Positions 8,567 to 35,914 of a stretch of DNA of 64,000 bases are shown here, piece by piece. A model generated the notes under the pieces. It ran no database searches and had not been told where the DNA came from. It saw only the letters and a list, made by a program, of their open reading frames with translations. The stretch comes from Lentilactobacillus raoultii (GTDB lineage: Bacteria; Bacillota; Bacilli; Lactobacillales; Lactobacillaceae), in assembly GCF_900411375.1 (NCBI RefSeq), contig NZ_LS422984.1, positions 529,350 through 593,349 on the forward strand, written 5' to 3'. The position numbers were made by a program, and so were the translations under genes. Every line of letters begins with the position of its first letter. Position 1 is the stretch's first letter.

Positions 8567-8569
8567 GAT

Positions 8570-9187: not shown

Positions 9188-9190
9188 GTG

Positions 9191-12881: not shown

Positions 12882-12976
12882 AAAGGACGATTCGATCGTT
12901 CGCTGGCCAAAGTACAGCCGACAGTCAGTTAATTAAAAAGTCAGCCGGTACATCACGTACTAGCTGGCTTTTTTGG
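12882..12976 (+). repeat. ~97 bp intergenic element, copy 3
   Basis: GGACGATTCGATCGTTCGCTGG core, then AGTACAGCC, GTCAGTTAATTAAAAAGTCAGCC, and a terminator hairpin ending CTGGCTTTTTTGG. It lies 65 bp behind the stop of the 13041 gene, the same place copy 2 has behind its paralogue, so copies 2 and 3 belong to the duplicated unit. Confidence 0.8.
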
Positions 12977-13040
12977 CATACATATAAGATTTTTTAGCAT
13001 GATAAGCATTGAACAATCAATAATCATGGTTTTTCATTGC

Positions 13041-14723
13041 TTAATACTTTCCTTGAATCACCAATTTTTTATTACCGCTCACGTAGTACCCGTTGCTTAA
13101 TTGATAACGAGTGGTGAGGTTATGCTTCACTAGCTTCTTAACCGTTAACCGAGTGCCCTTTCGGTAGGACTTCTGTCGGCCGGTTAGGGTTTCGTTCTTG
13201 TAGGCATGAATGCCCTTTTTCGAAATAACGGTAATCTTCTTACCTTTCGGGACCGATTGATAATAGGCTGGGACCACATATCGCTGGTTGGCAGTAATGT
13301 AGCCAACTTTACCTGCTGATTTGCGTGTATGGTTGACATCTTTTACCTTAAAGCGAAGTGCACCGCCGCGTGAACGAGCGTAATCAGTGATCACAAACAT
13401 TGGGCGATTAATCCGCTTTTGCTTAGGATATTTAGCAATCCGTTGAGATTTGGTGAAATTAGGGCTCTTGTACAAGTAAATCCCTCGAATGGCGTAAACG
13501 GCGGCCCCTTTCTTTTCAGCGTCGTTCGGTGCTTCCGGGGTTGGCTTTTCTGGAGTGATTGGTTCAGTTGGACTTGGCGTCGTTTCAGGTGGCGTTGGAG
13601 TATTTTGATTGGTATTATTGGAGTTACCGGAGCTACCAATAGAACCGTTACTGCCAGAGCCACCTGGATTTGTGCTTGGTGGTGTAACTGGTGGCTTTTT
13701 AGTGAGGGTTATTCGAGCTAGAATGCCGTAGCCCACATCCGAAGCTCTAATGTCTAAATCGATTGGATTTTCGTGGTTGGGATTAGTAATCGTTTTCTGT
13801 TCATTATCAATTGCAACCCTAGTTCCCTCAATTGTAACGTTACGTGGGACCAATTGTTCAACCCCGCCAACTTTAAACGAGAGTTTTTGAGAGTCCAATA
13901 TTTCTTGGAAGGTAAGGGGATCTGAATTAACGACTTCAGAAGCATGTGGGTCTGTACCCTCAAACTGATTTAAAAGTGCATCATGACTTGTTACACCATC
14001 CGGAAGACTCACAGAAGTAAGCAGATTATGATAAAATGACATTTTTGCAAGCGTCTTTGCTTTTGGCAATTTTAAGCTTGTAAGTTGATTTTGGGCAAAT
14101 GCAAACTCTCCCACAGTTTCAACTTCTGGTAAATCGACGCTTTTAAGTTGATTGCCATAAAATGCATTATCCTTTATTTCCTTGGTTTTGGGTAACGATA
14201 TGTCAACTAGGAGACTACTTTGAAAAGCCGACTTCCCAATACTGACAGCCTCTGGTAACACTAGATTTTGAAGCTTACTATACAGGAATGCGTTTGCGTC
14301 AATTTTTTCGACAAGTGGCAGGTTAACTGAAAAAATTTTATTGCTTGCAAAAGCGTTTTTTCCGATCTCTTTAATGCCCGGTGCATCTAATGAAGAGATG
14401 CCTGGGCCCTTTTTTTCTGCCAAGTTTTCAAGCCGGGATTTCTCGAATGCAATGTCATCTATGCGGGATGCCAGTCCACTCGGAATAATCAGCGCTGCGC
14501 CGTCAACAAGTTTTTGGGCAACTGCTTCACTAGCCAAACCACTAATGGCGCCTTTCCAGAACGTCACATCACTTTTGGTTAACGTTACTGGCTCAGCCGA
14601 ATCTCGTTGTTTAGCTGTGCTAACGGATGCGGCTGCATTAGCGTTGATAGTTGATGATGTCATGCCGCTTCCTAACAGCGCACTGGCAAACAATAATCCT
14701 AATAATAATCGGTTTGGTTTCAT
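13041..14723 (-). CDS. Secreted leucine-rich-repeat (LRR_5) surface protein with DUF5776 tail, paralogue
   Basis: The 560-residue protein starts at ATG 14723 with MKPNRLLLGLLFASALLGSG, a signal peptide preceded by AGGGGAGGTAATCTC. LRR_5 repeats occupy ~100-270 (IKEIGKNAFASNKI, VGEFAFAQNQL). They are followed by a conserved 'LTFQEILDSQKLSFKVGGVEQLVP' type region, a Gly/Ser/Asn/Pro/Thr linker (~350-400) and DUF5776 at the end. Compared with the 10968 gene, the tail and signal peptide are nearly the same while the repeats and linker differ. That pattern fits duplication followed by diversification of the ligand-facing part. The intergenic terminators downstream are duplicated too. Confidence 0.9.
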   Translation of the reverse strand: MKPNRLLLGLLFASALLGSGMTSSTINANAAASVSTAKQRDSAEPVTLTKSDVTFWKGAISGLASEAVAQKLVDGAALIIPSGLASRIDDIAFEKSRLENLAEKKGPGISSLDAPGIKEIGKNAFASNKIFSVNLPLVEKIDANAFLYSKLQNLVLPEAVSIGKSAFQSSLLVDISLPKTKEIKDNAFYGNQLKSVDLPEVETVGEFAFAQNQLTSLKLPKAKTLAKMSFYHNLLTSVSLPDGVTSHDALLNQFEGTDPHASEVVNSDPLTFQEILDSQKLSFKVGGVEQLVPRNVTIEGTRVAIDNEQKTITNPNHENPIDLDIRASDVGYGILARITLTKKPPVTPPSTNPGGSGSNGSIGSSGNSNNTNQNTPTPPETTPSPTEPITPEKPTPEAPNDAEKKGAAVYAIRGIYLYKSPNFTKSQRIAKYPKQKRINRPMFVITDYARSRGGALRFKVKDVNHTRKSAGKVGYITANQRYVVPAYYQSVPKGKKITVISKKGIHAYKNETLTGRQKSYRKGTRLTVKKLVKHNLTTRYQLSNGYYVSGNKKLVIQGKY

Positions 14724-14859: not shown

Positions 14860-15627
14860 TTAATCCAAGTCAAATTCCTTGTCTTTTTTCAGCAATGATT
14901 GATAGCCCAATCCTGGTTTGTAGTAAAATCCGAGTTCTTTTTTACAGTTTTCGATGATCATATCCTCCGTGATCGGCATGCCACATTCTGTCATAATCTT
15001 TTTCTGACGGGTGACGGAGACAAAGGTTTTGAAAGCCTTTTTAATTTCTCTGCAGAGATCGGTATAGCCGTTTTGGAGAACATCAATTAAGTGATTAATA
15101 TTTTTAAGGGTTTTAATCCGTTGATCTAAAAAGTATTTGGTGATGGGCAATTTAATCGGCGACTCAATGTCTTTGAAGAAGACGTAGGTCGCTTTGCCGT
15201 TTTCAATGGGCTGAATCGTTTCAATTTGATCAGCTGCCAGCCAAGTGACCTGGTTAGACTTCTGGGGATTCTTTAAAGGGATGAACCCTAACTCACCGTA
15301 TGGGAAGGGGATATATTCAAAAACGTTTAAGAAATGAGCCAAATCTTCTCTGGAATAGTCGTAATCGGTTGAGTAGTCGGCAACTAATTTTTTGATAAGC
15401 GTGGGGATAGTGACCGCGCAGCCGGTAATTTTTTCAGTCTTAAAGAAAATTGCAGTTTTGTATTTTGAAGTGGCACTCCGAAGCCACGTGACTAAGTAAA
15501 CATCGTTCCAATCCATCGATATTTTGGTTCGGTGACAATCCAGATGACTGGTTTTTAAATTTTCAATGTCTAAGGCATCTCGATGAGCACATTTTCCGGC
15601 AGCTGATAATTAACTAATAAAATCCAT
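14860..15627 (-). pseudogene. ComK-like regulator gene with a nonsense codon at codon 6
   Basis: The open part (ATG 15516 to 14860, 218 aa) resembles ComK competence factors, chiefly in the order FIPLKNPQ, TWLAADQI, YVFFKD, SPIKLPITKYFLDQRI. The same frame extends upstream without a stop to TAA at 15610-15612. Five codons before that is ATG 15627 behind an excellent GGAGGATCAAA site. So the original gene probably read MDFIS-stop-LSAAGKCAHRDALD. The internal ATG 15516 has no ribosome site. Either the gene is inactivated by one base change (for example CAA to TAA) or a shorter product is made. The ComK assignment rests on pattern memory and is moderate. Confidence 0.55.
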
Positions 15628-16433
15628 TTTGATCCTCCATATATCATTTGACGTTAATTTTCTTCTTATTATTACAATAGGCAAGAATATATCAAACTTT
15701 TCGACGAATGTAAACAAATATGGTGTATATTTTTTTGAGTAATATTGCTGCATCACATTTTGTGATACAAAACGTATACAAGACTATAGATTTTTATGAT
15801 TTCAATTATTTTAAAAATGCTTAATTCTTAGCAATAAATAATTAACTGCTGATACATTCGACTGATTAATTGCACTAAAAATCACATGTGGTGTAATTAA
15901 TTTTTAACTTTATTTTTTAACATTGCTTCTGAGTCAATTCAAAGGGATTAAATCAACAATTAAGCCATAACGTTTAGTGTATATTCTTTGTAAAACACAT
16001 GAATGGTCATTGTTTAAAAATTAATGCTGTGTTATTATGAATTCGTTATTTGATTAAGCACATAAATATTTACTAAAGGCTTACTTTATGATAATAGCGT
16101 TAGCATAAAGTTCTGAGGGACGAAAACAAATGTGGCACTTTTGACTGATAGATGGGGTTATTTGGAGGCTGAATTAAGCCTAATAATGAATCTGCCCGAT
16201 TAATCAAAAGCACTTTTATTCGTTTGCCTTTGTTGGCTTAACAACCATGCGGAAGGCTTTTTCTTTTACTTTGGTCGTTCAGAGCAGTCCATTAATAACG
16301 GATTGTTCTGAGAAAAGTTGGAATCATACCTTGAAAAATGGTAATGAGTTAATGTCTGGGGGACAGGCCATTAACTTAAAGATTAGATTAGACAACAAAG
16401 TATATCCCATTACGATAATATACTAAAATTGGA
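15628..16433. other. Long AT-rich intergenic region before secA2
   Basis: No gene is seen in 806 bp. The first half is very AT-rich. GCCTTTGTTGGC and GGAAGGCTTTTTC near 16226-16266 form a possible terminator-like or leader hairpin. GATAATATACT at about 16415 could be the -10 for the accessory Sec operon. Nothing matches a riboswitch or T-box that I know. Confidence 0.35.
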
Positions 16434-18790
16434 ATGGTAGTTATGTTTAGACATCTTTATTATCAATATCTTTCGCGCAAAATCCAACGAAGGATGAAAG
16501 AATTAAGAAAATTTAGCGATGCCCGTTTAAAGGCACAGACAGCGATTTTAAGAGGCAAACTCGCTCAGGGGAAAAGTTTAAACAGTCTTCTAGTAGAGGC
16601 CTATGCGACCGTTTGTGAAGCAGACAGACGCGTTCTAGGATTGACACCATACCCCGTTCAGATCGGGGGGGGGTGGTTTTACACTTTGGTAACATCGCCG
16701 AAATGAAGACCGGTGAGGGGAAAACCCTCACGGCAACCATGCCTCTTTACCTTCATGGCCTAGTTGGCAATGGCGTTTTTTTGATTACGGCAAATGAATA
16801 TCTTGCGAGAAGAGATGCCAAAGAAATTGGCAAAGTCTATCGTTGGCTTGGACTAACCGTCTCTTTAGGCGTTCCTGAAATCACGGAAGATGACTCGCAA
16901 AGAGACCTAAAAAAAATCTATAGTGCCGACATTATTTATACAACCCATAGTGAATTGGGCTTTGACTACTTATTTGATAATTTAGCAGAATCCAAGGAGA
17001 AGAAATATCTTCCCCCATTTAATTATGCAATCATTGATGAGATTGATTCGATTCTTCTCGACCAGGCGCAGACACCCTTAATTGTTTCGGGCGCCCCTGA
17101 CGTTCAATCGAATTTATTCAAAACGTCGCAGAGAATGGTGGGCCAACTGAAGAAGGGCGTTGATTTTAAACAGTCTGACGACGGGAAAAATGTTTGGATA
17201 ACTAAAACCGGCTTACATAATATTGAGAATTATTTGGGGATTTCAAATATCCTCAGCAGTCGTTATCGGAATGTGTACAGACACATTGTGATCGCTTTAA
17301 AGGCCAACTATTTGTTTAACAAGGATCGGGATTACGTTGTAGAAGACGATAAAGTGATTCTATTGGACAAAATGAACGGCCGAAAATTGATCGGGACCAA
17401 GCTCGAATCCGGTCTCCACCAAGCTCTGGAAGCCAAAGAGCACGTTAAAATTACACAAGAAACGAAAGCCGTTGCCAGTATTACTTACCAAAATCTGTTT
17501 CGGCTTTTTAAGCGTATCTCGGGAATGACTGGGACCGCGAAGACGGATGCGGATGAATTTCGGGACGTCTATCATTTAAATACTGTTGTCATTCCACCGA
17601 ATAAAAAGGTCATTCGTCAGGACCATCCTGACCATATTTACGTGACCAACAAAGAGAAAATTGAAGCATCTTTGAAGTTAGTGGCTGCCACTAACCGAGC
17701 TAAACGACCGATCTTGATTGAGACCGGCTCTGTTTCCATGTCCGAATTATATTCCAGACTATTACTGTATGAGGGATATCCCCACAACGTTTTAAATGCG
17801 ACAAGTGCCGCTAAAGAAAATCGAATTATTAAAGAGGCTGGCCATGAAGGCGCGATTACGGTGGCAACCGCGATGGCCGGTCGGGGGACCGATATCAAAA
17901 TTACCGACGGTGCCAGAAAAGCAGGCGGTCTATTGGTACTTGGGACCGAACGAATGTCTTCTGCCCGAATCGACAATCAATTGCGGGGCCGAGCCGGTCG
18001 CCAGGGTGACCCTGGTGACAGCGTTTTTTATGTCTCATTGGAAGACAAAGTGGTGGTTGAAAATGCGCCGAAGTGGGTTAAAAAGTATCGAAAACGCCAT
18101 GACAATGCCAGATTTACCGGCAATTTGACCGGTAAGAAACGCTTTAAGCATGTTGTGGACAAATCCCAAGACGTTCAGAGAAATGGTGAATTTTCCGAGC
18201 GACTACAAAATGTTGAATTTGATGAAGTGGCCAAGACACAGCGGAATTACGTTTACGCTACCCGCAATAAAATTATTTATGCCAGCCAGTTTGATGATTT
18301 GATCAAAGAAGCAATTAAAAAAGCCGTCAATCATTTTTCAGCAACTGTCAAAACGACGTCGGCGTTAAACGATTTTATCTATAACAACATCGACTATACA
18401 TTTATTCCCAGTGAGCACCCATTGCCGAAAAATTGGCAGCAAAACCGGTCACTTTTGAAGCAGTTTTTACTGCAACTAATCGCGACCCAAAAGGCTGCGG
18501 TGTATCAGAAATTTCCTAATGCGGATCAATTGAACTATTACAAGCGCATTGTTTTGTTAAAGTCTGTTGATACCATGTGGATTGATCAGGTCAGCGCGCT
18601 TCAGCAATTGAAATCGGTGGTCGGTGATCGAAGCTGGGGTCAGCACACACCGGTTTATGAATACCAGCAGGAAGCCAAGACGGCGTTTGCCAACATGAGA
18701 GACGGGATTTATCAACTTGTTTTAAAAAACATACTATTATCGGAAATCGTCTATCGAGAAGATGGCACAATTGACATTGTTTTTCCGTAA
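16434..18790 (+). CDS. secA2: Accessory Sec ATPase SecA2, out of frame at a G9 tract
   Basis: SecA2 is the cytosolic motor of the accessory Sec pathway, which exports serine-rich-repeat glycoproteins. Frame 1 (16434-16706) encodes the N-terminus up to VLGLTPYPVQIGGG. The rest, from VVLHFGNIAEMKTGEGKT to the end, is in another frame opening at 16673. The break is at nine G residues (16665-16673). One more G joins the frames into a 785-residue protein of normal SecA2 size with canonical spacing. It contains Walker A GEGKT, Walker B IIDEIDSI, and QLRGRAGRQGDPGDS. As read, only a truncated product is expected. The cause may be slippage (phase variation) or a sequencing error. It is first in the operon. 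Confidence 0.9.
16665..16673 (+). repeat. Nine-G homopolymer in secA2
   Basis: A run of nine G at the exact point where the secA2 frame breaks, in otherwise AT-rich DNA. A length of 10 (or 7) restores the frame; 9 does not. Confidence 0.9.
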
Positions 18791-18806
18791 GTGATTGGGG
18801 ATATGT

Positions 18807-20009
18807 ATGAAATTATTACTTAAAAAAATTGCGTTTACAGTGATGATGGTTGCCATCCTTGAGATTGGTAGCGACATCCTGTTACCGGGATTTCCGGCCA
18901 AGGATTACGTCAACTCAATCGGTCAAAATGCTTATATTAATTTGGCTTCCAGTAACTTCGGGAGTCAAATTACAGTCCCCAGCCTGTTTGCATTGGGGAT
19001 GGGACCCTATATGACCGCCTTAATTGTCTGGCAAACAATCACCATCACCAGTGAAGACACATTCAAAAGATTATCGCCCAAGGTGACGGGCTTTTGGCAA
19101 AAGCTGATTACTCTGATCTTTTCGATTTTGCAGGCGATTGCAACTGCCTGGTTGTTTATGAAGTATCGGCCGAACATGCACGGATACTCTTGGCTGGCCT
19201 TTTACTTTACCATTTTGATCATTTTGGTTGCCGGCTCCATGTTCATTGTTTGGCTGGCAGACTTGAATGCCAAGTGGGGTGTTGGCGGAACCAGTATTCT
19301 GATTATTCCGGCCTTGGTTAAGAACCTGCCCACCGTCCTCAATTCCGGCTTGAAGCACCCGATTGAGTTTGATTTTCAGATCAGCACGGTCATGATCCTG
19401 TTGATGATCGTCTTCTTCCTAATGTCGGTTTATACCAACCAGGCTGAAGTCCGTTTCAAGATTGAACGGGTCAGCATCAGCAGTCGGTTGACGGATTCCT
19501 ATATTCCAATTAGGTTGTTGGCGTCCGGCGCCATGCCGTTCATGTTTGCGATGTCACTTTATTCAATCCCGTCGTTGCTCCTGTCTAGAAATAAACTCAA
19601 TGGTACGGGACACGCATTTCTGGCTCAAGCCTTTTCGTATCATACCTGGCAGGGTATCTTAACCTATAGCGCGATCATTGTCTTTTTGGGTTACGGCTTT
19701 GCGTTTGTCAACGTGCGGCCACACAGCATTGCCAAGTCTTTACAAAAGAGTGGGGATTACATTCTCAACATTGTTCCCGGCAAGGATACGGAGACTTACC
19801 TAACCAACCATCTCTATCGAATTATTTTTATCGGTAATTGTTTCATGTTATTCATTGCCGTGACACCGCTCTTTCTGGGGCTATACGTGCCACAGTTGAC
19901 CAATTTTTCGTTTCTCTTTGGCTCCCTGCTGATTCTCATCACCATGTTGGACAATGTGATTCAGGAAGTTCACGCGTTGTTTGTTAAAAATCAATACAGC
20001 ATCTTTTAG
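18807..20009 (+). CDS. secY2: Accessory Sec channel protein SecY2
   Basis: The 400-residue membrane protein forms the accessory Sec pore for the glycoprotein substrate. It has about ten hydrophobic spans. Typical SecY elements are visible: plug-side start DILLPGFPAKDYV, PSLFALGMGPYMTALIVWQ near residues 52-70, and the cytoplasmic loop before VSISSRLTDSYIPIRLLASGAMPFMFA. I use ATG 18807 (MKLLLKKI), with GGGGA about 6 bases ahead; TTG 18795 is an in-frame alternative. It begins 16 bp behind secA2, so the two are co-transcribed. It is shorter than housekeeping SecY (~430), as SecY2 usually is. Confidence 0.9.
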   Translation: MKLLLKKIAFTVMMVAILEIGSDILLPGFPAKDYVNSIGQNAYINLASSNFGSQITVPSLFALGMGPYMTALIVWQTITITSEDTFKRLSPKVTGFWQKLITLIFSILQAIATAWLFMKYRPNMHGYSWLAFYFTILIILVAGSMFIVWLADLNAKWGVGGTSILIIPALVKNLPTVLNSGLKHPIEFDFQISTVMILLMIVFFLMSVYTNQAEVRFKIERVSISSRLTDSYIPIRLLASGAMPFMFAMSLYSIPSLLLSRNKLNGTGHAFLAQAFSYHTWQGILTYSAIIVFLGYGFAFVNVRPHSIAKSLQKSGDYILNIVPGKDTETYLTNHLYRIIFIGNCFMLFIAVTPLFLGLYVPQLTNFSFLFGSLLILITMLDNVIQEVHALFVKNQYSIF

Positions 20010-20048: not shown

Positions 20049-21647
20049 ATGTTCTATATCATACCGTCTTGGGATACTCAGACCCTAAATATTGATTACG
20101 ACTATCTGTTAAATAAAATGCTGATGTTTGAAGAAGAGGGGGTTCCCTACCTAATCATGGGGGAGACTTTCAATCCAATGCTGACGCTGCAGTTAAATAA
20201 ATTTGGCTTGATAAATGCGAAAGTCTGGCAGGCCTTTGATGAGATTCAAAATGTTCATTTGACCGTTGGCAAACCGCTGTCATTTGAAGACATTCCAATG
20301 CCAAGCCAAGTGGAACAGGTCTATTCGCCCTATGGGATTTCTTTGATGGGGGACGATCATCTGGTGGCGTTTGCCGAAATGTTTGCGGGCATTGTGTTGC
20401 AAAAAATTACTTATTACCGGGATGATGATAATCAAACCATTGATCATGTGGATATTTTTGATGGCCGGGGGTTTCTCTCAAGACGTTATCTTTTTGATGC
20501 CGGCCAAGTTCGGCTGATTAAGTTATACAATCCGTTTGGTGAAGTCGTCTTAACAGTCGATGAGACTCAAAACGGTCTGGTAACAATCTATCAGAGCCAT
20601 CATTTTGCTAAAGATCATTATGCATCATTGACTGAATTGGTGATTGAAGTTTCGAGACGGTTTTTATGGAAAGCTGACGGCAATGCCAAAATTATTTCAG
20701 CGGTTGATGATCAATTTTCAACGCTAACGGCAGCCATTCAATTGAACCATCCCGTCTGCAATGTCATCACCGACACGTCGCCCGATGATGAAATCAAAAA
20801 GGCCCTGACGTTGTCATCGAGCCCCAAGGTATTGGCCCCGTCTGAACAACGCTTGGCTAAAATAACGGCTTTCTGCCATGATTTGGAGTTGACCGATGTT
20901 CATTCGAAATTTGTGCCACCCTATCCAACCGAGTTTGACCTGGGAATCAGTAATAGTTTAGCCACCCAAATCATTTTTTGGCACGTCGAACAAATGGACC
21001 ACAAACGGGCAACCCGGCTGGCCGAGACGCTGGTTAAACTGGTTGTTGATTCCGAGGATAAGGAACTATTGGTCAATGCAGTTGATCAGCCCACCTATGA
21101 AGTGATTCATAAGGCGGTAATTCAATGGATTGAACGGCAATTTGATGTTTCTGTTAATTCAGAAGAACTAGCGTGGGTCAGAACCTATCTTGAAGCCCGT
21201 AGTAACCATCAGCTGACAAAGGACATGATCAAAGAGGCCAAAAAAAGAAGTCATCAAGAAAATTGGCAGAATTTGATTGATGCCACGTTGGCATTGGCAA
21301 AGTTACACTTTGATAAAAACCATCAGATGAGTTTCTACGATGAGTCACTCAAGCGGGCCCGCCTCTTGGTTGATCTATCGCCAACGCCATCACCTTACTT
21401 ACAGACAAAGGCGATCAGCTTTGGGATTCCCCAAATCAATGCGATTGCGACCAGCTTTGTGACGGACAAGAAAAACGGCATCATTTTGAAAAAAGATCGA
21501 AAGTTGGATCGAGCCGTCAATTACTTCTTGGACACCTTGGACAACTGGAACTTGGCTGTGGTTGAAGATGTTAAGAAAATGGGCGAGTTCTCCAAGTCAA
21601 CTTTGGTCAGTCAAATCAATGCGATTTTTGAAGAAGGTGAAGCATAA
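20049..21647 (+). CDS. asp1: Accessory Sec protein Asp1
   Basis: The 532-residue cytoplasmic protein starts with MFYIIPSWDTQTLNIDYDYLLNKMLMFEEEG, typical of Asp1. Asp1, Asp2 and Asp3 form a complex that hands glycosylated serine-rich-repeat protein to SecA2. Asp1 has a glycosyltransferase-like (GT-B) fold without known activity. No signal peptide or membrane span is present. CGAGGC precedes the ATG. Its stop overlaps the start of asp2 by one base (TAATG), so translation is coupled. The length fits the family. Confidence 0.9.
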   Translation: MFYIIPSWDTQTLNIDYDYLLNKMLMFEEEGVPYLIMGETFNPMLTLQLNKFGLINAKVWQAFDEIQNVHLTVGKPLSFEDIPMPSQVEQVYSPYGISLMGDDHLVAFAEMFAGIVLQKITYYRDDDNQTIDHVDIFDGRGFLSRRYLFDAGQVRLIKLYNPFGEVVLTVDETQNGLVTIYQSHHFAKDHYASLTELVIEVSRRFLWKADGNAKIISAVDDQFSTLTAAIQLNHPVCNVITDTSPDDEIKKALTLSSSPKVLAPSEQRLAKITAFCHDLELTDVHSKFVPPYPTEFDLGISNSLATQIIFWHVEQMDHKRATRLAETLVKLVVDSEDKELLVNAVDQPTYEVIHKAVIQWIERQFDVSVNSEELAWVRTYLEARSNHQLTKDMIKEAKKRSHQENWQNLIDATLALAKLHFDKNHQMSFYDESLKRARLLVDLSPTPSPYLQTKAISFGIPQINAIATSFVTDKKNGIILKKDRKLDRAVNYFLDTLDNWNLAVVEDVKKMGEFSKSTLVSQINAIFEEGEA

Positions 21648-23230
21648 TGCAGACAAGTGTTTTACAGTTAGGCGGCGAAAAAGTCGAAGTGGCAGCGTTC
21701 TTAGACGACACGTTTAAGTTTACTTATTTGCCGATGACGACCCCGGAAGACGTGGTCGATGCGCAGAATTTTCTATTAACCGGTCAGAGTATTAAGGACC
21801 AGTATCAGAGTGCCGTTTTTATTCTGGGGGATGACTCCTATGCGTTCTTAATGCCCGATTTACTTTTGAAATTACGGGCCAATAAAATTATTTGTGGCGA
21901 GCACGCGGATAAGTACCGCGATAGTTTCAAATTGCTGCAACGTAAAAATGTGATCCAGCGAGATTTGACTGATGGTAAAAGCTTGGGAGATTTCATTAAC
22001 AACGTGCTTTTTAGTGGCCAATATGGTGACCTACTTGATTTTAACGACATCGCTGTTTTACCGAAGTTTCAGTCACATATGGAACAATTTGGTACCGGTG
22101 AACTGCAATTAAAGAATCTTCAATTAGATCAATTGACTCAAGTGATTAATTGGCGGATGACTCTTTCGCTGGCAAAGAATACCCGGCTGGCATTTTGGCC
22201 TGAATTTGAATTACTTGGCCAGGCCCGGGTGGTTTTCAAACTCTACTTATTGGATCAGTTTTCAGGAAAAATTTTAATGGCTCATAGGGTCGGCAGTGAA
22301 AAGTTGTTAACGCACCCCTTTATCTTAGATGTGCCAGCTGATGGGTGTAATTTGTTTGTCACCGCTTTGTTGAAAGGATCGGTTGAGAAATTTTCCGTGA
22401 GAAATTTATACCTTAGACGGGACCGTTATGGCTTTGGCGGTGCCATGGTTGGCTCAAAGATGATCACGGATTCGGCCCATTGTGGCGGCCAACTGGGAGT
22501 TTATTTTAATGCCGGCAATCTCAAGCCACCGTTGAACGTCTACTTTGGTGGTTGGCGAACCGCCGTGGGGTTTGAAGGTGCTGGGATTATGAGCAGAGTT
22601 GGGGATGGCTCGGCACCTTATTTACTGCTTTCTGATGAGCGGCTTGAAGGGGGTGCCTTCTACATTGGTGATGACGCATTGGAGCAACAGATTGTTGTGA
22701 CAATTAAAAAGTACTTGAAAGTTTTAAACTTTTCCAATACAGATTTAGTTCTGTCAGGGATTTCGATGGGGTCAACGGCAGCCCTTTACTATGCGGCTGA
22801 CTTGGACCCCGGGGCAGTGATTGTTGGCAAGCCCTTGGCCAATTTAGGGACAATGGCCCAAAATGAGCGGCTGATTCGGCCGTATGGATACCCGACGTCA
22901 TTAGACATCCTCCTGCTTAACGAAGGGGCAACGGACGCTGAAGCGCAAAGCAGACTGAACCAACATTTTTGGGATCATTTTAAAACGGGAGCGTTTACCA
23001 ACCCGACGATTAACATTGCCTACATGAAACAGGATGATTACGACCACGATGCTTTTAGCGAACTCTTTCACTTTCTGAAAGATCAGCACCCGACCATCAA
23101 GATTTTGTATAAAGGCTTAACTGGCCGCCACAACGATGATACACCGGGCATTGTCAGTTGGTTTATGAGGCAATTTGAAAATACCATGCAAAATAAATTC
23201 AATCGGGGAAGTGACTTCATTAATGGCTAA
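21647..23230 (+). CDS. asp2: Accessory Sec protein Asp2, serine-hydrolase-fold acetyltransferase
   Basis: The 527-residue protein begins at an ATG overlapping the asp1 stop. Its C-terminal ~280 residues are an alpha/beta hydrolase fold with the nucleophile elbow GISMGS (Ser373), a YYFxGWR-type segment (VYFGGWRTAVGFEGAGIM) and a late His in LTGRHNDDT. In streptococci Asp2 adds O-acetyl groups to GlcNAc on the glycoprotein and is also needed for export. It is expected to work with Asp1/Asp3 at SecA2. The first ~250 residues are the less conserved Asp2 N-terminal region. The catalytic Ser appears intact. Confidence 0.9.
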   Translation: MQTSVLQLGGEKVEVAAFLDDTFKFTYLPMTTPEDVVDAQNFLLTGQSIKDQYQSAVFILGDDSYAFLMPDLLLKLRANKIICGEHADKYRDSFKLLQRKNVIQRDLTDGKSLGDFINNVLFSGQYGDLLDFNDIAVLPKFQSHMEQFGTGELQLKNLQLDQLTQVINWRMTLSLAKNTRLAFWPEFELLGQARVVFKLYLLDQFSGKILMAHRVGSEKLLTHPFILDVPADGCNLFVTALLKGSVEKFSVRNLYLRRDRYGFGGAMVGSKMITDSAHCGGQLGVYFNAGNLKPPLNVYFGGWRTAVGFEGAGIMSRVGDGSAPYLLLSDERLEGGAFYIGDDALEQQIVVTIKKYLKVLNFSNTDLVLSGISMGSTAALYYAADLDPGAVIVGKPLANLGTMAQNERLIRPYGYPTSLDILLLNEGATDAEAQSRLNQHFWDHFKTGAFTNPTINIAYMKQDDYDHDAFSELFHFLKDQHPTIKILYKGLTGRHNDDTPGIVSWFMRQFENTMQNKFNRGSDFING

Positions 23231-23978
23231 CGTTTCAATTGTCAACTGGGGCAGTTATTTGCATCCAGTCGAAGCACATGGTGCCCGTATTAAACATCAA
23301 GTTGGGGTAGTTGAATACACCTCACCGCTCTTGCCACCGGGAACCAACATCTATACTTGGCAGTCCGAAGGTCGTTTTCAAGACATACGAATGCAGGGGG
23401 CATTGCCAATTTTACGTGGGAATCACACGTACCAACTGATTGGCAAACTTGAAGCGATTCCTGAAAATTCAGCGTATTTTCGGGTTGCCACTTACGATCA
23501 TGAGAACCAATTTATTAAAGAGTTCATCCTTGAAGGATCCGGCGGCACGTTTGACTATCCGGTAACTGCCAGAAGATACAACATCTCGTTAGTGGTTAAA
23601 GCCAACCAGTTGGTTCGATTTAAGTGGTTGGCGATTGGCTTAGCTAACGAGTTGGCTGACGTCAAGTTGGAAGTCAGTGACGATTTACGGATTAGTGCGG
23701 TGCTTGCTGACAAGCCCCAAGGCTTTAATATTTATGTTACTAAAAAAGGGGCCAGCAGTTGGCTGGTACCCGTCCAGGCGGATAGCTCTCAAGCCGTCAT
23801 TAGATTGACTGATGATGAAATCGAGAATGGGGACACCACTAGCTTTGCGTTATTGGATCAAGTTTTTAAAAAATATGATTTAACACATTACCAGACCAGA
23901 ATCCGGGCCTACGGGTATCCGTTGACCAGCGTGGTTCAGGCATTTCAAGAACGGCTGTCTAGGCTGAAGGGAGAATAA
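23223..23978 (+). CDS. asp3: Accessory Sec protein Asp3
   Basis: Asp3 (251 residues from ATG 23223, MANVSIVNWGSYLHP) is the carbohydrate-binding-module-like partner of the Asp1-3 complex. The frame is open upstream to 23175 inside asp2. The internal ATG is chosen because Asp3 proteins start near this WGSYLxG-type segment and GGGGAAGTG lies just ahead. It overlaps the asp2 end by 8 bp, indicating coupled translation. Segments SPLLPPGTNIYTWQS and the beta-rich middle fit the family. No membrane span is present. Confidence 0.85.
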   Translation: MANVSIVNWGSYLHPVEAHGARIKHQVGVVEYTSPLLPPGTNIYTWQSEGRFQDIRMQGALPILRGNHTYQLIGKLEAIPENSAYFRVATYDHENQFIKEFILEGSGGTFDYPVTARRYNISLVVKANQLVRFKWLAIGLANELADVKLEVSDDLRISAVLADKPQGFNIYVTKKGASSWLVPVQADSSQAVIRLTDDEIENGDTTSFALLDQVFKKYDLTHYQTRIRAYGYPLTSVVQAFQERLSRLKGE

Positions 23979-23987: not shown

Positions 23988-25475
23988 ATGACGACTTATA
24001 CAAATAATCAACCAATGAACTTTTTTGTTAATCGTGCAATGGGAATCGGTAATTCCGGGGTTGAGCACGCCCAGTTCTATCGCGCCAAGCGCTTTGATCA
24101 GGTTGGCCTGCCTTACAAATTTATTTTTGTTCAGTTGGTAAAGGAACTCCATCCGGCAATGGATGCGTGGAATTTAAGAAATGATCAAGTGATTAACATG
24201 TATGAATACTTTGTGCTGGGAAAAGACTACCTCAAACATGGGGTTAAGAACTTTTACACTCCCAAGACAAAGGTGATTGTTGACGGGAGCAATACCAACC
24301 GAATTATTAATACGGTGACCGCATCCGGTATGCAAGTGGTTGAAACGGCGGTTAAATATGAAAGTCGGAAAAAGAAAGGCTTTCTAATCGTCAGTGTCTC
24401 AACTGTGGAAATCTATGACTATGCCACTGGAAAGCGGAAGGTTCTACTTGATTTTTACGATAACCAAAAGGGTGGCACCGTGATCAGAAATATCCACTTA
24501 TTCGATGAAGAGGGCAAGCACCTATTCTTCTGGAATGAAGTGCAAATGCAACGTTACTTCTTTAAAAAAGTCGATCAGGCCTATGGTGGTGGTAATAATT
24601 GGTTCTTGGATAGAGGAGAAGAAAGCGAAGCGGCGCTATTCTATCCCAAATTCCCTGGCAGTCGATTGGTCGAGGTCGTCCACGCTGATCACTTATCTGA
24701 TCGTAACGATCCAAGGTACCCACTGTGGAATAACTATTATGAATATGCGTTAACCCACGTTGATCGTGTCGAAAGAGTTATTTCAGCCACCCAGAAACAG
24801 ACCGATGATTTTCTGATTGACTTTCCTGGTCAGGAAAAGAAATTCGTGACGATTCCAGTTGGCGGGGTCAAGGATTTACCAAAGGTTCCCGAAGTTGATG
24901 ATAGCAAGCGCATTCCACCACTTCACCTGATCACGGCTTCTCGGCTGGCCGGTGAGAAGCATATTGATATCGCCGTTAGATCCGTTGCCAAAGTTAGAAG
25001 TGAGGGAATTGACGTCTCTTTAGACATCTATGGTGCCGGCGGCGAAGATAAGCATATCAAAGACGTCATCAAGACGGTTGGCGCTGAGGATTACATCAAG
25101 TTAAAGGGCTTGTCCCACCACTTGGATCAAATCTATCCCAAGTATGATGCCTTTATCACGGCATCGTGGTCGGAAGGCTTTGGCTTAACTACCGTTGAAG
25201 CTTTGAGTGCTGGTTTGCCCGTCATTGCGTACAAGGCCAGATTCGGCTCAGAAGAAATGATTGAAGATGGGGTTAACGGTTTCTTACAGCCACTTAAAGT
25301 TGGTGATGAAAATTTGGCCTTTAATGTCGATCAGTTAGCGAATGGCCTTCATCGCTTACTTAAAGCGGATTATCCAAAAATGAAACGAGCTACTTATACA
25401 TCGATGGCCCCTTATCAAGACCATGTCATTGCACATAAATGGGAGGAATTTGTTCATGCATTACGAAATAACTAA
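23988..25475 (+). CDS. gtfA: SRR-protein O-GlcNAc transferase subunit GtfA
   Basis: The 495-residue protein matches GtfA, the catalytic subunit that adds the first GlcNAc to Ser/Thr of serine-rich-repeat proteins in the cytoplasm. It begins NFFVNRAMGIGNSGVEHAQFYRAK. It carries the GT-B domain with SRLAGEKHIDIAVRSV, DIYGAGGED, and the retaining E-x7-E motif in SEGFGLTTVEALSAGLPVI. Its N-terminal half has the beta-meander add-on typical of GtfA. AGGGAGAATAAT stands 9-12 bases before ATG 23988. It overlaps gtfB by 20 bp. GtfA normally needs GtfB as a stabilising partner, and that partner is short here. Confidence 0.9.
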   Translation: MTTYTNNQPMNFFVNRAMGIGNSGVEHAQFYRAKRFDQVGLPYKFIFVQLVKELHPAMDAWNLRNDQVINMYEYFVLGKDYLKHGVKNFYTPKTKVIVDGSNTNRIINTVTASGMQVVETAVKYESRKKKGFLIVSVSTVEIYDYATGKRKVLLDFYDNQKGGTVIRNIHLFDEEGKHLFFWNEVQMQRYFFKKVDQAYGGGNNWFLDRGEESEAALFYPKFPGSRLVEVVHADHLSDRNDPRYPLWNNYYEYALTHVDRVERVISATQKQTDDFLIDFPGQEKKFVTIPVGGVKDLPKVPEVDDSKRIPPLHLITASRLAGEKHIDIAVRSVAKVRSEGIDVSLDIYGAGGEDKHIKDVIKTVGAEDYIKLKGLSHHLDQIYPKYDAFITASWSEGFGLTTVEALSAGLPVIAYKARFGSEEMIEDGVNGFLQPLKVGDENLAFNVDQLANGLHRLLKADYPKMKRATYTSMAPYQDHVIAHKWEEFVHALRNN

Positions 25476-26337
25476 CATCATTGACGAAAATAACCCAGCT
25501 TGGACTGAACAAAAGAAACGAATCCAGGAAACCAACGGCAAGGTGTTCACTCTGGCACCCGATCCGGGCTTACGGGATGAATTATTGAATAATCAAATTC
25601 AAGGCCTTAATTTAATCGACACCATTACTCATCGCTCTATCGATTATGACAAGTCCGCCTTTATGTATTTTAACCGGGTCCCAACTGTCGATGGTGCCGA
25701 GATCTTCATGAATGAAGACTTCAGTGTTGATATTATTGCCAATGGCGATGTCATCGGTCATGTGATTTTATGGCCACTGCTTCGGCGCCACGTTAAGGAA
25801 ATTCAATACATTCATCAAAATCGGCAACCCGATTACACTGAGGAAATTGCCAGTGATGGTAAGAAGTTCAGTAATATCATTTATACCCGCGACGATGTGC
25901 AACGAATTGACTTTTATGACGATAATGAACATCCAGTAGTTAGATTTTTCTTTTATCAGAACAACTTAAACTGGATTACCATTAGCGACTTTCATTCCTT
26001 AAACGTGGTTGCCCAGTATAGTAGCATGGATGACTTTGTAGCGACCGAAGTTGGTAAATTGTTGACCGAAAATGATACGGTTGGCATTAACTTCTTGGGC
26101 ATTGAACTAACAGCTTTATCCAAGTCAAAATCACAAAACACTTTATATTTGGCTGAAGATCCGATTGATGAAAACGGTAATGTCCGGGGAAACCTTATGG
26201 CGATTTTGAACAATGATATTTCGTATGTTCAAAGGGTCAGAATGAGTGAGGATAAGCTTCAGAAGTTAATCAACGCCGGTGCACCGACTTCAAAGGTGGA
26301 AGTTGACGCCGCGGTTGAAGCCACTCAAAAGGATTGA
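25456..26337 (+). CDS. gtfB: GtfB-like stabilising protein, lacking the C-terminal domain
   Basis: From ATG 25456 (MHYEITNIIDE; GGGAGGAATTTGTTC ahead) the protein has 293 residues. The N-terminal part aligns by pattern with GtfB: YFNRVPTVDGAEI, the meander region and RDDVQRIDFYDD, then SLNVVAQ. GtfB is the partner that stabilises GtfA and presents substrate, and is usually ~440-450 residues with a C-terminal Rossmann-like domain. Here the protein stops about 40 residues after the 'GNLMAILNND' segment, where that domain would begin. The next gene follows 10 bp later, so the missing part is deleted, not frameshifted. Confidence 0.75.
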   Translation: MHYEITNIIDENNPAWTEQKKRIQETNGKVFTLAPDPGLRDELLNNQIQGLNLIDTITHRSIDYDKSAFMYFNRVPTVDGAEIFMNEDFSVDIIANGDVIGHVILWPLLRRHVKEIQYIHQNRQPDYTEEIASDGKKFSNIIYTRDDVQRIDFYDDNEHPVVRFFFYQNNLNWITISDFHSLNVVAQYSSMDDFVATEVGKLLTENDTVGINFLGIELTALSKSKSQNTLYLAEDPIDENGNVRGNLMAILNNDISYVQRVRMSEDKLQKLINAGAPTSKVEVDAAVEATQKD

Positions 26338-28564: not shown

Positions 28565-31500
28565 TTGTCTAAGCCAAAAGGAAATAAACGGCAAAACATT
28601 CGGCGTCTTGAAATGACTAACGAAAAGCTTCATTACAAGATGTATAAAGCCGGTAAAAACTGGATGTTTGCCGGAATTGCTTTCTTTGGCGGATTATTGG
28701 GGGCGAATATCGGGATCAGCACTACATATGCTGCATCCAGCAGTTCTGGTGCAACAGCTGCTAAGCAAACTGATTCGAGTGTATTGGCAGATCAAAGTTC
28801 TACCAACATTCCCGCTACTTCCGGGAGCACATCTGAAAGTTCATCTACCAGCAATCAGTCCAAAGATTCTCAAGTCAATAAAGTTTCTACCAGTATGAGT
28901 AAAGCTTTATCAACGTCAACTTCGGCTTCACTTTCTGAATCCAAGTCGACGAGCATGTCACTTTCTCAAAGCACAAGCAAGAGTACCAGTGACTCTGCCA
29001 AGGAGAATAAGTCATCGACAAGCGATTCTTCTAATAGCAGTAAAGGTTCTACTTCGGGGAGTCAAAAAGCTGTCACGGCTTCAACGAATTCGACTTCTAG
29101 CGCGGATCAAAATTCGGGGGATTCGCAAAATAAGTCGAATTTGCAAGCAACGACTAACTCGCAGAATACGAATTCGCAGTCGAAAACTGATTCACAGAAC
29201 GGGTCAAATAATGGATCAAATTCACAGTCAACGACGAATTCAGAGAACGCCACCAATTCTCAAGCTTCAACGGAATCACAAACTAACTCGACGAATTCAC
29301 AAGCCCCGGCTAACACGCAGGACATTTACAATCAGGTTCAGCAAGCAACGCCGGCAGGCTCAGTTGTTTCCGTCAATGATAACACCAACACCATTAATGT
29401 TGGCTTAACGACAGCTACTGCACCAACGACGGATCTTTTAACGGCTGTCAGCAATATCGGTGAAGCCAACGGAATGGCCGCCAACTTTGTTAATCTAACA
29501 GATGGCAATAGCGATGGTGAACATTCTGTTGCAACTGATCCGGATGCGGGGAGATCCGACTTTAACAATGAGATTGATAATCCATCCACGAATACCTCAC
29601 CAACTTCAGTGACGGTTGCAACACCGGATGAGATTACGAATAATGCCAAGTATTACCAAGATGCCAAGACTAATAAAACTTTAGCGGATAACGTTACCAC
29701 TTTCGATCAATTAGTGGATGCTTGGAATAATCCAAATATTACCTATATCAATATAACTGGTGATTTTAGCTATACTGGCGCGACTGACGAGGCAGCTGCA
29801 ACTGCCGGGACGTCGCTTAAGGATCGTCAAATGAATGGTACCGGTGTTATTATCAATGGCAATAACCATACGATTGATCTCGGCCGCAACAATTTTGACT
29901 ATAGCGGTGGTACAACGGCAACTACTTTCACAATTAGTAATGCAATTGTTAAACAGGGTTATCCTGGACTTAAAGATGGTGATTTCCGCGCCATAGTCTC
30001 TTCTCATGTTAACAATCGGTTAATTGCTAATATTAATAATATAACGCTGGAGAGCTCATCTAATGGTGGTAATCCAGTCCATGTAATGTTTGATGATGGC
30101 GGTAAGATCACATTTTCCGGCACTAATAACTTCACTATTTCAAATGAAGTTACCCGTGGTGTTTCGAGTATTAACTTTGCAAACAATTCTCATGTCACAA
30201 TGCAGCGGACATCTAATGATATAAAATTTTCAGAGTTTTACATGAGATATCGGGCACCGAAAGATTCAGTTGGCTATGGCAACACGATTACTATGGGGGA
30301 TGTCTCTTCGAACAAGGCTATGTCGTACAACGACCAAGCTGAAGACTACCCAGCAGCGTATTTGGATGTTGATGCAATAACCGCTGGAGATAATGTTAGT
30401 TGGACTCAAACTGGATTCCAGTACTTCATCAATGGTACGCAAGGTGCTCTTTCAACGGCTAAATACACGTTTGGTCAGAATTTCCATCTATCAGCGCCAA
30501 TTACAGTGCAACCAAATGCAATCCGACTGCAGGGGACTCAGTCAGTTACCTTTAATGCTGGGACTGTGTTGGATATTCATCAACGTGCAAATGGTTCCGT
30601 TATTAGGACGTACGGTAGTTCTACGGTAACCTTCATTTCACCAAAATCTCTACACATGGCGGTTGAAGACAGTTCTGGTAATCCAATCCAGCCAACTGGT
30701 CTTGGTGACGGCGTGATTTCCGGTACTGGGACATTTACAATGAATAATTCCAGTATTTTGACTTGGGATGGCACCCATTCTAGTGATACCACTCCTAAGG
30801 GTGATCATAGTGATACGTTCACTCAGTTAAGCGTTAAGAATGGCCAAGCAACCTTGACTGATCTCAAGGGAAATCAGAGTACATCAGCAATTGTCGGCAC
30901 AATAACGCGTGAGTTACAAACCACAGCTTTAAAGCCAGGTACCATTACGCTGAACTATGTCGATCAGAATGGCAAGACGATCAAGTCTGAAAAGATGACT
31001 TTGCCGGATGATGCTTATATTGGTGAATACCTCAATCTGATTACTAAGCAATACGCGGTAACCGATATTCCTGCAAATTACATGTGGGCAATTGGTACAC
31101 AGGTTTACTCAAAAGCCAATCAAGATGGCGGCGATTCCACAACTGACAAAGATAATGGTGATAAGTATGGCCAAGCCAACGAAGCAGTCGTTCCAATGGA
31201 AGGCAAGAACTATACTTATAACATTTACCTTTATGGGAAACCGAATACCGGCATCACTTACCAATATGTTGACGCAATTACAGGCAAAGTTCTCACAACT
31301 AAGACGGCAGATAGTGGTAAGGAAGCTTCCGGGACTGCTAATGCTCCTGCCAACTATGGGAACACGATTAACTGGGCAAGTGATTACTACAAGAATCAAT
31401 TATCTTCTGCTGGTTATCACTACGCAACAGGTTCTGAGTTGGTTAATGGTGAAAAGCAGCCGACAACAACGACGGTTGGAACAGATCCAGCAAACGTTAA

Positions 31501-34500
31501 GATCTATGTTGTATCGGACAATTGGAATTCTGAATCAACCAGTGCTTCGAAGTCAACTTCTGGAAGTTTAAGTACCAGTCTTTCAAAGTCGGAGAGTACA
31601 GCTTCCAATTCCAAGTCGGATACGACGAGTGAATCGAAGTCAACTTCGGAAAGCTTGAGTACTAGTCTTTCGAAGTCGGAGAGTACAGCTTCCAATTCCA
31701 AGTCGGATACGACAAGTGAGTCGAAGTCAACTTCAGAAAGTTTGAGTACCAGTCTTTCAAAGTCGGAGAGTACGGCTTCCAATTCCAAGTCGGATACGAC
31801 GAGTGAATCGAAGTCAACTTCGGAAAGCTTGAGTACTAGTCTTTCGAAGTCGGAGAGTACAGCTTCCAATTCCAAGTCGGATACGACGAGTGAATCGAAG
31901 TCAACTTCGGAAAGCTTGAGTACCAGTCTTTCGAAGTCGGAGAGTACAGCTTCAAATTCCAAGTCGGATACGACGAGTGAATCGAAGTCAACTTCGGAAA
32001 GTTTGAGTACCAGTCTTTCGAAGTCAAACAGTGCAAATTCAGTTTCTGAATCAACCAGTGGTTCGCGTTCGCAGAGTGCCAGTCTTTCGAACAGTAAATC
32101 ATTATCAGACAGTAACTCATTGTCGGATTCCAATTCTGGTAGTTTAAGTAAGAGTGAATCACTTTCCAATAGTCGATCACTATCGAATAGTGCTAGTCTC
32201 TCGAATAGTAAGTCATTATCCGACAGCAACTCATTGTCGGATTCGGACTCTGGCAGTTTGAGTAAGAGCGAGTCGCTTTCGAATAGTCGATCACTATCAA
32301 ATAGTGCTAGTCTCTCGAACAGTAAGTCATTATCCGACAGCAATTCATTATCTGCCTCAGATTCTGGTAGCTTGAGTAAGAGCGAGTCGCTTTCGAATAG
32401 TCGATCACTATCGAATAGTGCTAGTCTCTCGAATAGTAAGTCATTATCCGACAGCAACTCATTGTCGGATTCGAACTCTGGTAGTTTGAGTAAGAGTGAA
32501 TCGTTTTCGAATAGTCGATCACTATCGAATAGTGCTAGTCTCTCGAACAGTAAATCGTTGTCGGATAGCAACTCACTATCCGCCTCGGATTCTGGTAGCT
32601 TGAGTAAGAGTGAATCGCTTTCGAATAGTCGATCACTATCGAATAGTGCTAGTCTCTCGAATAGTAAGTCATTATCCGACAGCAATTCATTATCGGCCTC
32701 AGATTCTGGTAGCTTGAGTAAGAGCGAGTCGCTTTCCAATAGCCGATCACTCTCGAACAGTGCTAGTCTCTCGAATAGTAAGTCATTATCCGACAGCAAT
32801 TCATTATCGGCCTCAGATTCTGGTAGCTTGAGCAAGAGCAATTCACTATCCAACAGTGCTAGTCTTTCGAACAGTAAGTCGTTATCGGACAGTAACTCAT
32901 TATCCGCTTCCAATTCTGGTAGTTTGAGCAAGAGTGAATCACTTTCGAATAGTCGATCACTATCGAATAGTGCTAGTCTCTCGAACAGTAAATCGTTGTC
33001 GGATAGCAACTCCCTATCCGCCTCGGACTCTGGTAGTTTGAGTAAGAGTGAATCGCTTTCGAATAGTCGATCACTATCAAATAGTGCTAGTCTCTCGAAC
33101 AGTAAATCGTTGTCGGATAGCAACTCCCTATCCGCCTCGGATTCTGGTAGCTTGAGTAAGAGCAATTCGCTATCCAACAGTGCTAGTCTTTCGAACAGTA
33201 AATCATTGTCGGACAGTAACTCACTATCGGCTTCAGATTCTGGTAGCTTGAGTAAGAGCGAGTCACTATCGAATAGTGCTAGTCTTTCGAACAGTAAGTC
33301 ATTGTCGGACAGCAACTCGTTGTCGGCTTCGACCTCAAGCAGTTTGAGTACAAGCGGGTCACTTTCAAATAGTGGATCAGCTTCTGTAAGCTTAAGTACC
33401 AGTGAGAGTTTGAGTACTAGTGCTTCACTCTCAACAAGCAAATCGAATTCAACCTCAGCTAGTTTGAGTACCAGTGCTTCAACTTCAACCAGTGGATCGA
33501 ATTCAACTTCTGAGAGTTTGAGCACAAGCAGCTCAGTATCGAACAGTGCCAGTCTTTCGGATAGTCGATCATTATCGAATAGTAACTCATTATCCGCTTC
33601 GACTTCCGGTAGCTTGAGTACCAGTGGTTCAACTTCGACTAGTGGTAGTCTTTCGAAGAGTAATTCGGTTTCGAATAGTGCTTCGTTGTCGAACAGTAAA
33701 TCAGCTTCTGCAAGCTTGAGCACAAGCGGTTCAACTTCAACCAGCGGTAGTCTTTCAACGAGTGGCAGTCTCTCAAATAGTAATTCGTTGTCGGCCTCAA
33801 CCTCTGGAAGCTTGAGTACCAGTGGTTCAGCTTCAACGAGTAGAAGTCTTTCAACCAGTCTTTCGAAGAGCAATTCGTTATCGGAAAGCACTTCGAAATC
33901 AGATTCGACTTCCGCAAGCTTAAGTACGAGTGCTTCACTTTCAACAAGTAAATCGAATTCAACCTCTGCAAGCTTGAGTACGAGTGGATCGACTTCAACG
34001 AGTGGTAGCTTCTCAACCAGTCTTTCGAAGAGTAACTCCTTATCAGAAAGTACTTCGAAGTCGGATTCAACTTCTGCAAGTTTGAGTACCAGTGGCTCAG
34101 CTTCTAATAGTGCAAGCCTTTCAAAGAGCGATTCGTTATCGAATAGCAACTCCTTATCAGATTCGACTTCGGCTAGCTTGAGTAAGAGTGAATCGCTTTC
34201 GAATAGTAAGTCGTTATCAGGTAGCAACTCCTTATCCGCTTCCAACTCTGGCAGCTTGAGCAAGAGTGAATCACTTTCGAATAGTCGATCACTATCAAAC
34301 AGTAATTCACTTTCCAACAGTGCTAGTCTTTCGAATAGTAAGTCGTTATCGGATAGCAACTCCTTATCGGCCTCGAACTCTGGTAGTTTGAGTAAGAGTG
34401 AATCGCTTTCAAATAGTAAGTCGTTATCAGATAGCAACTCGCTATCGACATCGAATTCCGGTAGCTTGAGTAAGAGCAATTCACTATCGAACAGTGCTAG

Positions 34501-35914
34501 TCTTTCAGATAGTCGATCATTATCCCAGAGTGATTCGACTTCTAAGAGCTTGAGTACGAGTGAGTCAGTCTCAAACAGTGGCAGCCTTTCAGTGAGTGGT
34601 TCACGAAGTGCTTCTGCTTCAAATAGTGCATCGTTGTCAACCAGCTTATCGAACTCAACTTCAGAAAGTTTGAGTACCAGTGGTTCGAAGTCAACTAGCG
34701 CGTCAGCTTCCACTTCCGGTAGTTTGAGTACAAGCGATTCGAAGTCAACGAGTGACAGTCTCTCAACCAGTACGTCGAGGAGCGACTCGTTGTCAGACAG
34801 TGCATCGTTGTCAACCAGCTTATCGAATTCGACTTCAGAAAGTTTGAGTACTAGTGGCTCCACGTCAGCTAGTGGCAGTCTTTCAACCAGTGCTTCAAAG
34901 AGTGATTCCTTATCCGAGAGCACGTCATTGTCAGATTCGACCTCAGCTAGTTTGAGTACCAGCGAGTCGACTTCGACAAGTGCGTCGACTTCCACTTCTG
35001 CAAGCTTGAGCACCAGTGAATCGACTTCTACTAGCGACTCAATGTCTACTTCTGGCAGTTTAAGTACAAGTGGGTCCACCTCAACGAGTGGTTCAGCTTC
35101 TACTTCCGCAAGTTTGAGTACGAGTGCCTCACTTTCAGCCAGTGATAGTCTTTCAACCAGTGCTTCTGAGAGTAGTTACTTGTCGACTAGTTCGTCGTTG
35201 TCTACTAGCTTCTCGAACTGGATTTCAAACAGCGTCAGCTTCAGTAACTCATTATCAACAACTACTTCGACTTCATCTGCCGCAGATATCAGCACTAGTG
35301 CATCGACTTCGATGAGTACGTCGACTTCAAATAGTACCTCGACGTCAGCCTTTATGAGTTTGAGTACCAGCACGTCAATGTCGACTAGCTCGAGCACGCA
35401 TTCAACGAGCAGCTCGCATAAGACATCGTACGCAAACAGGGTTGTTAAGGGGCAGGCAATTTACAGTGTCCACGGAATGTACTTGTACAGTACGCCAACC
35501 TTTAAGAAGTCTCACCGAAAGATTCATTATAAGAAGACAAAGCGGGTTAATAGACCAATGTTTGTTGTCATTGGCATTTCTCACTCGAAGGCTGGCAGAT
35601 TACGTTATAAAGTTCGTGACGTCAACCATAGGAGCAAGACCGACGGGAAAGTTGGCTATGTCACCGCTAAGTCCAGCTTCGTCAAACCGGTTTATTATAA
35701 GACCGTTCATCGAAAGATTAAGGTCATTAATAGGCATGGGGTTAACGAGTATCGTCATCGGAATTTGACTGGAAAAGTCAGAAACCACAAGCGGGGACGA
35801 ATCCTTAAGATTAAAGGAATCGTTAAGTATCACTTGACGACAAGGTTTGTTCTGACCAACGGCCATTACATCACGGCTGATAAGAAACTGGTCATTATGA
35901 TGACTAAGCATTAG
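28565..35914 (+). CDS. Serine-rich-repeat glycoprotein, accessory Sec substrate, with DUF5776 tail
   Basis: The 2449-residue protein starts at TTG 28565 behind AAAGGAGGAGATATTAA. The long signal peptide carries KMYKAGKNW (residues 25-33, the KxYKxGKxW signature) and ends TTYAAS. A first Ser/Thr/Asn-rich stretch covers ~50-260. A beta-rich ligand-binding region follows (~300-770, with [15 protein letters not shown]), then MucBP-like repeats (~775-970: [26 protein letters not shown]). The main SRR region is ~983-2285, and DUF5776 covers ~2290-2449. There is no LPxTG. It should be O-glycosylated by GtfA/GtfB, exported by SecA2/SecY2 and held on the wall by the basic tail. It is probably an adhesin. 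Confidence 0.95.
31560..33340 (+). repeat. Two families of tandem repeats inside the SRR gene
   Basis: At about 31590-32030 a 29-codon (87 bp) unit, [20 protein letters not shown] plus [10 protein letters not shown], occurs five times with near-identical DNA. At about 32090-33340 a longer unit of mostly 38 codons (114 bp), starting [12 protein letters not shown], occurs about twelve times; some copies are shortened. High DNA identity makes length change by recombination likely. Confidence 0.85.

What the first reader, a model, noticed from the sequence alone, without database searches (positions are those of the whole stretch)
16665..16673. Possible G-tract ON/OFF switch in secA2
The secA2 gene is complete except for a break exactly at nine consecutive G residues, in AT-rich DNA. 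Adding one G joins both halves and gives the family spacing (PVQ, six residues, LH). Long G runs are classic slippage sites for phase variation. SecA2 is the first gene and the motor, so a change in tract length would turn off export of the large glycoprotein. A sequencing or assembly error in the homopolymer is the main alternative.
Basis: partly seen in the sequence, partly recalled or inferred. Interest (0 to 1): 0.85.

Follow-up and report, generated by a model that had tools for sequence, protein, structure and literature searches.

The report
Frame-broken secA2 at a G run
In this lactobacillus-like genome the motor gene of a surface-glycoprotein export system is split exactly at a run of nine G bases, which may be an on/off slippage site but could also be a plain mutation or a sequencing error.

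Summary
G9 lies at 16665-16673 and secA2 is broken exactly there: the 5' half matches TIGR03714 positions 11-78, the 3' half 80-761. The other accessory Sec genes are whole. G9 is the longest G run in the 3.07 Mb genome, which has one G8 and seventeen G7 runs.

The switch reading is only partly supported. The run is private: 91 of 91 distinct SecA/SecA2 relatives that matched the motif have at most six G there, and it overruns a codon that is L, I, M, V or T in all 91. Only two runs of eight or more G exist genome-wide. A second gene, an S9 peptidase, is also broken exactly at a C7 run, so G/C runs here are hot spots of real indels or of miscalls. Four of 71 other secA2 places in the family sample are also broken inside the gene.

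I favour a real slippage-made OFF allele, reversible in principle (0.5). Rivals: miscount (0.3), one-way decay (0.1), recoding at the run (0.08), two-piece protein (0.02). No second isolate or reads were available.

The parts
16665..16673 (+). G9 run at the frame break
16443..16706 (+). secA2 5' frame, from ATG to the TGA just after the run
16673..18790 (+). secA2 3' frame, 705 codons without a stop
16674..16731 (+). strong RNA fold right after the run: imperfect stem 16674-16712 and hairpin 16713-16731
18795..20009 (+). secY2, whole
20049..21647 (+). asp1, whole
21647..23230 (+). asp2, whole
23223..23978 (+). asp3, whole
23988..25475 (+). gtfA, whole
25456..26337 (+). gtfB, short form usual in this clade
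28565..35914 (+). serine-rich repeat surface protein, probable export substrate: KxYKxGKxW signal, pectate-lyase-like domain, DUF5776 end

Best explanation
The break is real and was made by strand slippage during replication at a private, slippage-prone G run inside secA2, just before the ATP-binding motif. In this assembly the gene is OFF: translation of the 5' frame stops at 16704, 13 codons after the run begins, no full motor is made, and the serine-rich glycoprotein should stay unexported; polarity may also lower expression of the downstream operon. Because the lesion is a length change in a run of nine, it should revert at a high rate, so the locus can behave like a contingency locus. Whether it is an evolved switch is not shown (I give that 0.17). 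Shown: run, break, whole neighbours, no stop in the 3' half. Inferred: slippage origin, OFF state, reversibility, polarity.
For: Break exactly at the longest G run of the genome. Operon otherwise whole, including the substrate signal. No stop in 705 codons of the 3' half. Ten of ten A/T runs of 7-8 inside my listed window ORFs lie in open frames, so the assembly is not generally poor at homopolymers. A second gene broken at a C7 fits real instability of G/C runs. Measured precedent for G-tract slippage in a commensal: PMC9187656.
Against: No length variation observed. The S9 peptidase break fits a G/C miscall equally well. The run is private and has replaced a conserved hydrophobic codon, so length change alone does not explain its origin. 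Only two runs of eight or more G in the genome. Three of five clearly intragenic G/C runs of seven or more are in intact genes.
Confidence: 0.5

Rival explanations
1. Sequencing or assembly miscount of the G run; the real gene is in frame.
For: A second gene is broken exactly at a C7: of five clearly intragenic G/C runs of seven or more, two sit at breaks. PMC9187656 (section 22) warns that database lengths of G tracts are often wrong. The 3' half has no stop.
Against: A/T runs of 7-8 in window ORFs are in open frames, ten of ten. In the 5' frame a codon conserved in 91 relatives is also replaced by G, which a pure length error would not give. The platform is unknown.
Confidence: 0.3
2. One-way loss: a fixed null allele on the way to a pseudogene, with no return.
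For: Four of 71 other secA2 places in the family sample are broken inside the gene (G338, G107, G327, G094). asp2 is split in G137. A neighbouring comK-like gene has an early stop. SRR pseudogenes are reported in L. reuteri (PMC4667477, passages).
Against: No second lesion in the 3' half or in the operon genes checked; a run of nine G is expected to be unstable (recalled).
Confidence: 0.1
3. Recoding: ribosomal -1 slippage, or RNA polymerase slippage, at the run makes some full-length SecA2 from the nine-G gene.
For: The 3' frame is the -1 frame of the 5' frame. A strong RNA fold follows the run: -32.6 kcal/mol, z -3.76; 4 of 330 operon windows reach z -3.5 or lower, one of them overlapping it; its energy is the lowest of 36 homologous stretches.
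Against: The stem begins at the run with no spacer (5-9 nt is usual, recalled). Run and fold are not conserved; relative L138 reaches z -3.91 without a run. Transcriptional slippage work seen concerns A/T runs (PMC1088944, passages); the recoding review had no hit for my G-run terms in the held text.
Confidence: 0.08
4. Two-piece SecA2: the 3' ORF is translated on its own from GTG 16673 or from ATG 16703, which overlaps the TGA (ATGA).
For: The ATGA overlap at 16703-16706.
Against: The overlap follows from the conserved AEMK codons. Of 30 secA2 loci from the family search (L001, L111-L139), the 29 others have open frames of 778 aa or more. The product would start at the ATP-binding loop without the Q motif (recalled).
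Confidence: 0.02

Closest known systems
Bifidobacterium breve sortase-pilus G tracts (PMC9187656, abstract and sections 15, 22 read)
   Same: Intragenic G tract in the first gene of a surface-adhesin operon splits it into two ORFs; commensal host
   Different: There the tract is in the pilin, equivalents occur in other strains and length variation was measured; here it is in the secretion motor, private, and variation is untested
Frameshifted srr genes of Lactobacillus casei accessory Sec clusters (PMC5566788, passages read)
   Same: Same export system; frameshift; phase variation suggested
   Different: Break in the substrate genes (a dinucleotide deletion; a gained base in a five-A run), not in secA2, no long G run
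Listeria inlA 5' poly(A) tract (PMC2831843, abstract read)
   Same: Homopolymer near the 5' end of a surface gene with high-rate frameshifts
   Different: Poly(A), in the adhesin itself

Membership tests
Accessory Sec system SecA2 (TIGR03714) | Match to the SecA2 model over its length | tested here: met
   Only as two pieces, 11-78 and 80-761; the larger scores 872 against the 930-bit whole-protein cut-off
Accessory Sec system SecA2 (TIGR03714) | Operon with secY2, asp1-3, gtfA/B and an SRR substrate | tested here: met
Phase-variable homopolymer contingency locus | Long homopolymer whose length sets the frame | tested here: met
Phase-variable homopolymer contingency locus | Length variation within a population or between isolates | not testable with these tools
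   no reads and no second isolate held
Phase-variable homopolymer contingency locus | Tract kept in relatives or a set of such tracts in the genome | tested here: not met
   At most six G in 91 of 91 relatives; two runs of eight or more G in the genome
Programmed -1 frameshift signal | Slippery run in the right phase, short spacer and downstream structure, conserved | tested here: inconclusive
   Phase and structure present; no spacer; not conserved

The most novel reading that the evidence does not exclude
The species switches its whole accessory Sec export line, not a single adhesin, ON and OFF by replication slippage at a lineage-specific G run in the motor gene secA2, next to an RNA fold that could allow a low basal level of full-length motor in the OFF state.
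Probability: 0.17. Interest if true: 0.65.

Novelty: new member of a known kind. Interest (0 to 1): 0.35.

Why it matters
If real, one run of nine bases would control export of the cell's very large surface glycoprotein through its dedicated motor, extending commensal G-tract switching from the adhesin to the secretion machine. I saw no such report in the listings (open-access library only, partial lists). If it is an artefact, it is a caution for annotating secA2 pseudogenes.

Tried and rejected
Second copy of the species: none found. One exact 30-base search of viral contigs found nothing. Plasmids gave only distant secA2/secA and asp1 and no species match. A truncated GtfB was suspected and rejected: about 285-300 aa is the form in all five nearest relatives. 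General homopolymer failure of the assembly was considered and lowered by ten of ten A/T runs in open frames. A break at the G8 on contig 26 was looked for and not seen, without a family search of that gene. The promoter and terminator scan was at chance level. The recoding review had no hit for my G-run terms.

Full report
Observation. The window has nine G at 16665-16673, the only G run of seven or more in its 64 kb. The genome has one G9, one G8 and seventeen G7 runs in 3.07 Mb, counted from the overlapping matches. The 5' frame starts at ATG 16443 and stops at TGA 16704; the 3' frame is open to 18790. NCBIfam SecA2 (TIGR03714) is matched at 11-78 by the first piece and 80-761 by the second, so nothing is missing but the frame. 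secY2, asp1, asp2, asp3, gtfA and gtfB are whole when compared with families and with the five nearest relatives. The 2449-codon substrate has the KxYKxGKxW signal, a pectate-lyase-like domain, serine repeats and a DUF5776 end.

Where it is. No tool gave a species name. Family patterns and named SecA hits suggest a lactobacillus-like bacterium; this is inference. A single 85% plasmid match of about 100 bases is to Lentilactobacillus hilgardii, too little to name the genus. At E <= 1e-172, 1 of 24 genus genomes has this secA2 and 68 of 397 sampled family genomes do, at 72 places. The nearest copies are 67-68% identical and in other genera.

Is the run special? By base composition it is not: shuffles of the window give such runs often enough. 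By the genome's own practice it is: long G runs are rarer than shuffles predict. GGG is a minor Gly codon with no GGG-GGG pair in 26 window gene intervals. Of 92 distinct SecA/SecA2 sequences that matched my motif search, one is the window's. In the other 91 the spacing from Q to the motif is identical and the longest G run at the site is six. The second residue after Q is L, I, M or V in 89 of these 91 and T in 2; in the window's 5' frame it is Gly. The run has therefore spread over a conserved codon as well as changing length. The 91 mix SecA1 and SecA2. The motif search missed some fetched loci (L122, L125, L126 and L129 gave no line), so 91 are those that matched, not all fetched.

Miscount or mutation? 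I read the other 18 runs of seven or more G/C. Three lie inside intact domains (amidohydrolase L161, M42 peptidase L163, TP-methylase L165). One lies in an S9 peptidase (L162) broken exactly at the run: its pieces match Pfam PF00326 at 2-114 and 121-208, and its one genus homologue, in G008, is whole with a shorter run. The G8 sits at the end of one gene next to the start of another. By my reading the rest are outside long frames or near their ends, four of them just before a start codon like a Shine-Dalgarno run (L150, L152, L155, L158). All ten A/T runs of 7-8 inside my listed window ORFs lie in open frames. So the assembly is not generally poor at homopolymers, but two of five clearly intragenic G/C runs of seven or more sit at breaks. 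Real slippage and a G/C-specific miscall both predict that, and only reads can separate them.

Decay? Of 71 other secA2 places in the family sample, four are broken inside the gene: G338 by a nonsense codon, G107 and G327 by frameshifts, G094 by loss of its end and fusion to another frame (G327 is a 93% complete, 7% contaminated genome). The break sites of G338, G107 and G327 hold no run above four bases in the stretches inspected; the G094 junction was not inspected for runs. Two more (G102, G267) end at or near contig ends. asp2 of G137 is split with no long run at the site. A comK-like gene just upstream and divergent (Pfam 19.9 bits, below its 22.3 cut-off) has a stop at its sixth codon where two genus relatives are open. 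OFF alleles in such loci need not be switches. Against long decay in the window, the 3' half has no stop in 705 codons; 4.8% of single substitutions there would make one, so at about 3% neutral divergence the chance of none is 5%.

Recoding? The 3' frame is the -1 frame relative to the 5' frame. The RNA after the run folds strongly (-32.6 kcal/mol, z -3.76). Along the operon 4 of 330 windows reach z -3.5 or lower, one of them overlapping this fold, and 3 of 330 reach its energy. Its energy is the lowest of 36 homologous stretches, but relative L138 reaches z -3.91 and L008 -3.01. The stem begins at the run itself and nothing is conserved, so I hold this at 0.08.

Mechanism chosen. Replication slippage at a private G run has put secA2 out of frame. 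Translation ends 13 codons after the run begins; the motor is not made; the glycoprotein should not be exported; downstream genes may be lowered by polarity, as argued for the B. breve pilus loci (PMC9187656, sections 15 and 22). Slippage origin, reversion, OFF phenotype and polarity are inferred. As a dedicated switch I give it 0.17.

Comparison with print. PMC9187656 (abstract and two sections) reports measured G-tract variation in commensal pilus operons and warns that database lengths of G tracts mislead. PMC5566788 (passages) suggests phase variation for frameshifted srr genes of L. casei, the nearest published idea seen. PMC4667477 and PMC6973325 (passages) report SRR pseudogenes and defective adhesion of secA2 mutants in L. 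reuteri. PMC2831843 (abstract) gives poly(A) frameshifting of inlA. PMC10620731 (passages) reports indels in A/T runs of a staphylococcal variant and only a substitution in its secA2. I saw no paper on a G-run switch in secA2 in the listings; some were cut to the best 20.

Noticed in passing
G000 contig 19, 2560-2566 (L162 1501-1507): An S9 (prolyl oligopeptidase) gene is broken exactly at a C7 run; the one genus homologue is whole.
   Followed up: yes
14860-15632 (minus strand): Weakly comK-like gene with a stop at codon 6, where two genus relatives have an open start.
   Followed up: partly
16674-16731: Unusually stable RNA fold directly after the G run, absent in this form from the relatives folded.
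   Followed up: partly
L150, L152, L155, L158: Four of the G7 runs of this genome lie just before start codons, like extended Shine-Dalgarno sites (my reading).
   Followed up: no
25456-26337: GtfB is about 290 aa here and in the five nearest relatives, much shorter than the 438-position model.
   Followed up: partly
10971-14723, 35300-42119, 58300-62696: Seven surface-type proteins, the serine-rich one included, end in DUF5776.
   Followed up: no
L145 8202-9756: asp2 of G137, one of the nearest relatives, is split in two frames with no long run at the site.
   Followed up: partly
2515-10096: Reverse transcriptase-like, Mrr-type endonuclease and Abi_2 genes side by side: defence-like or mobile genes.
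   Followed up: no
42358-53463: MFS transporter, PucR regulator, AllG/AllH, amino-acid-kinase and amidohydrolase genes: a purine/allantoin-type catabolic cluster.
   Followed up: no
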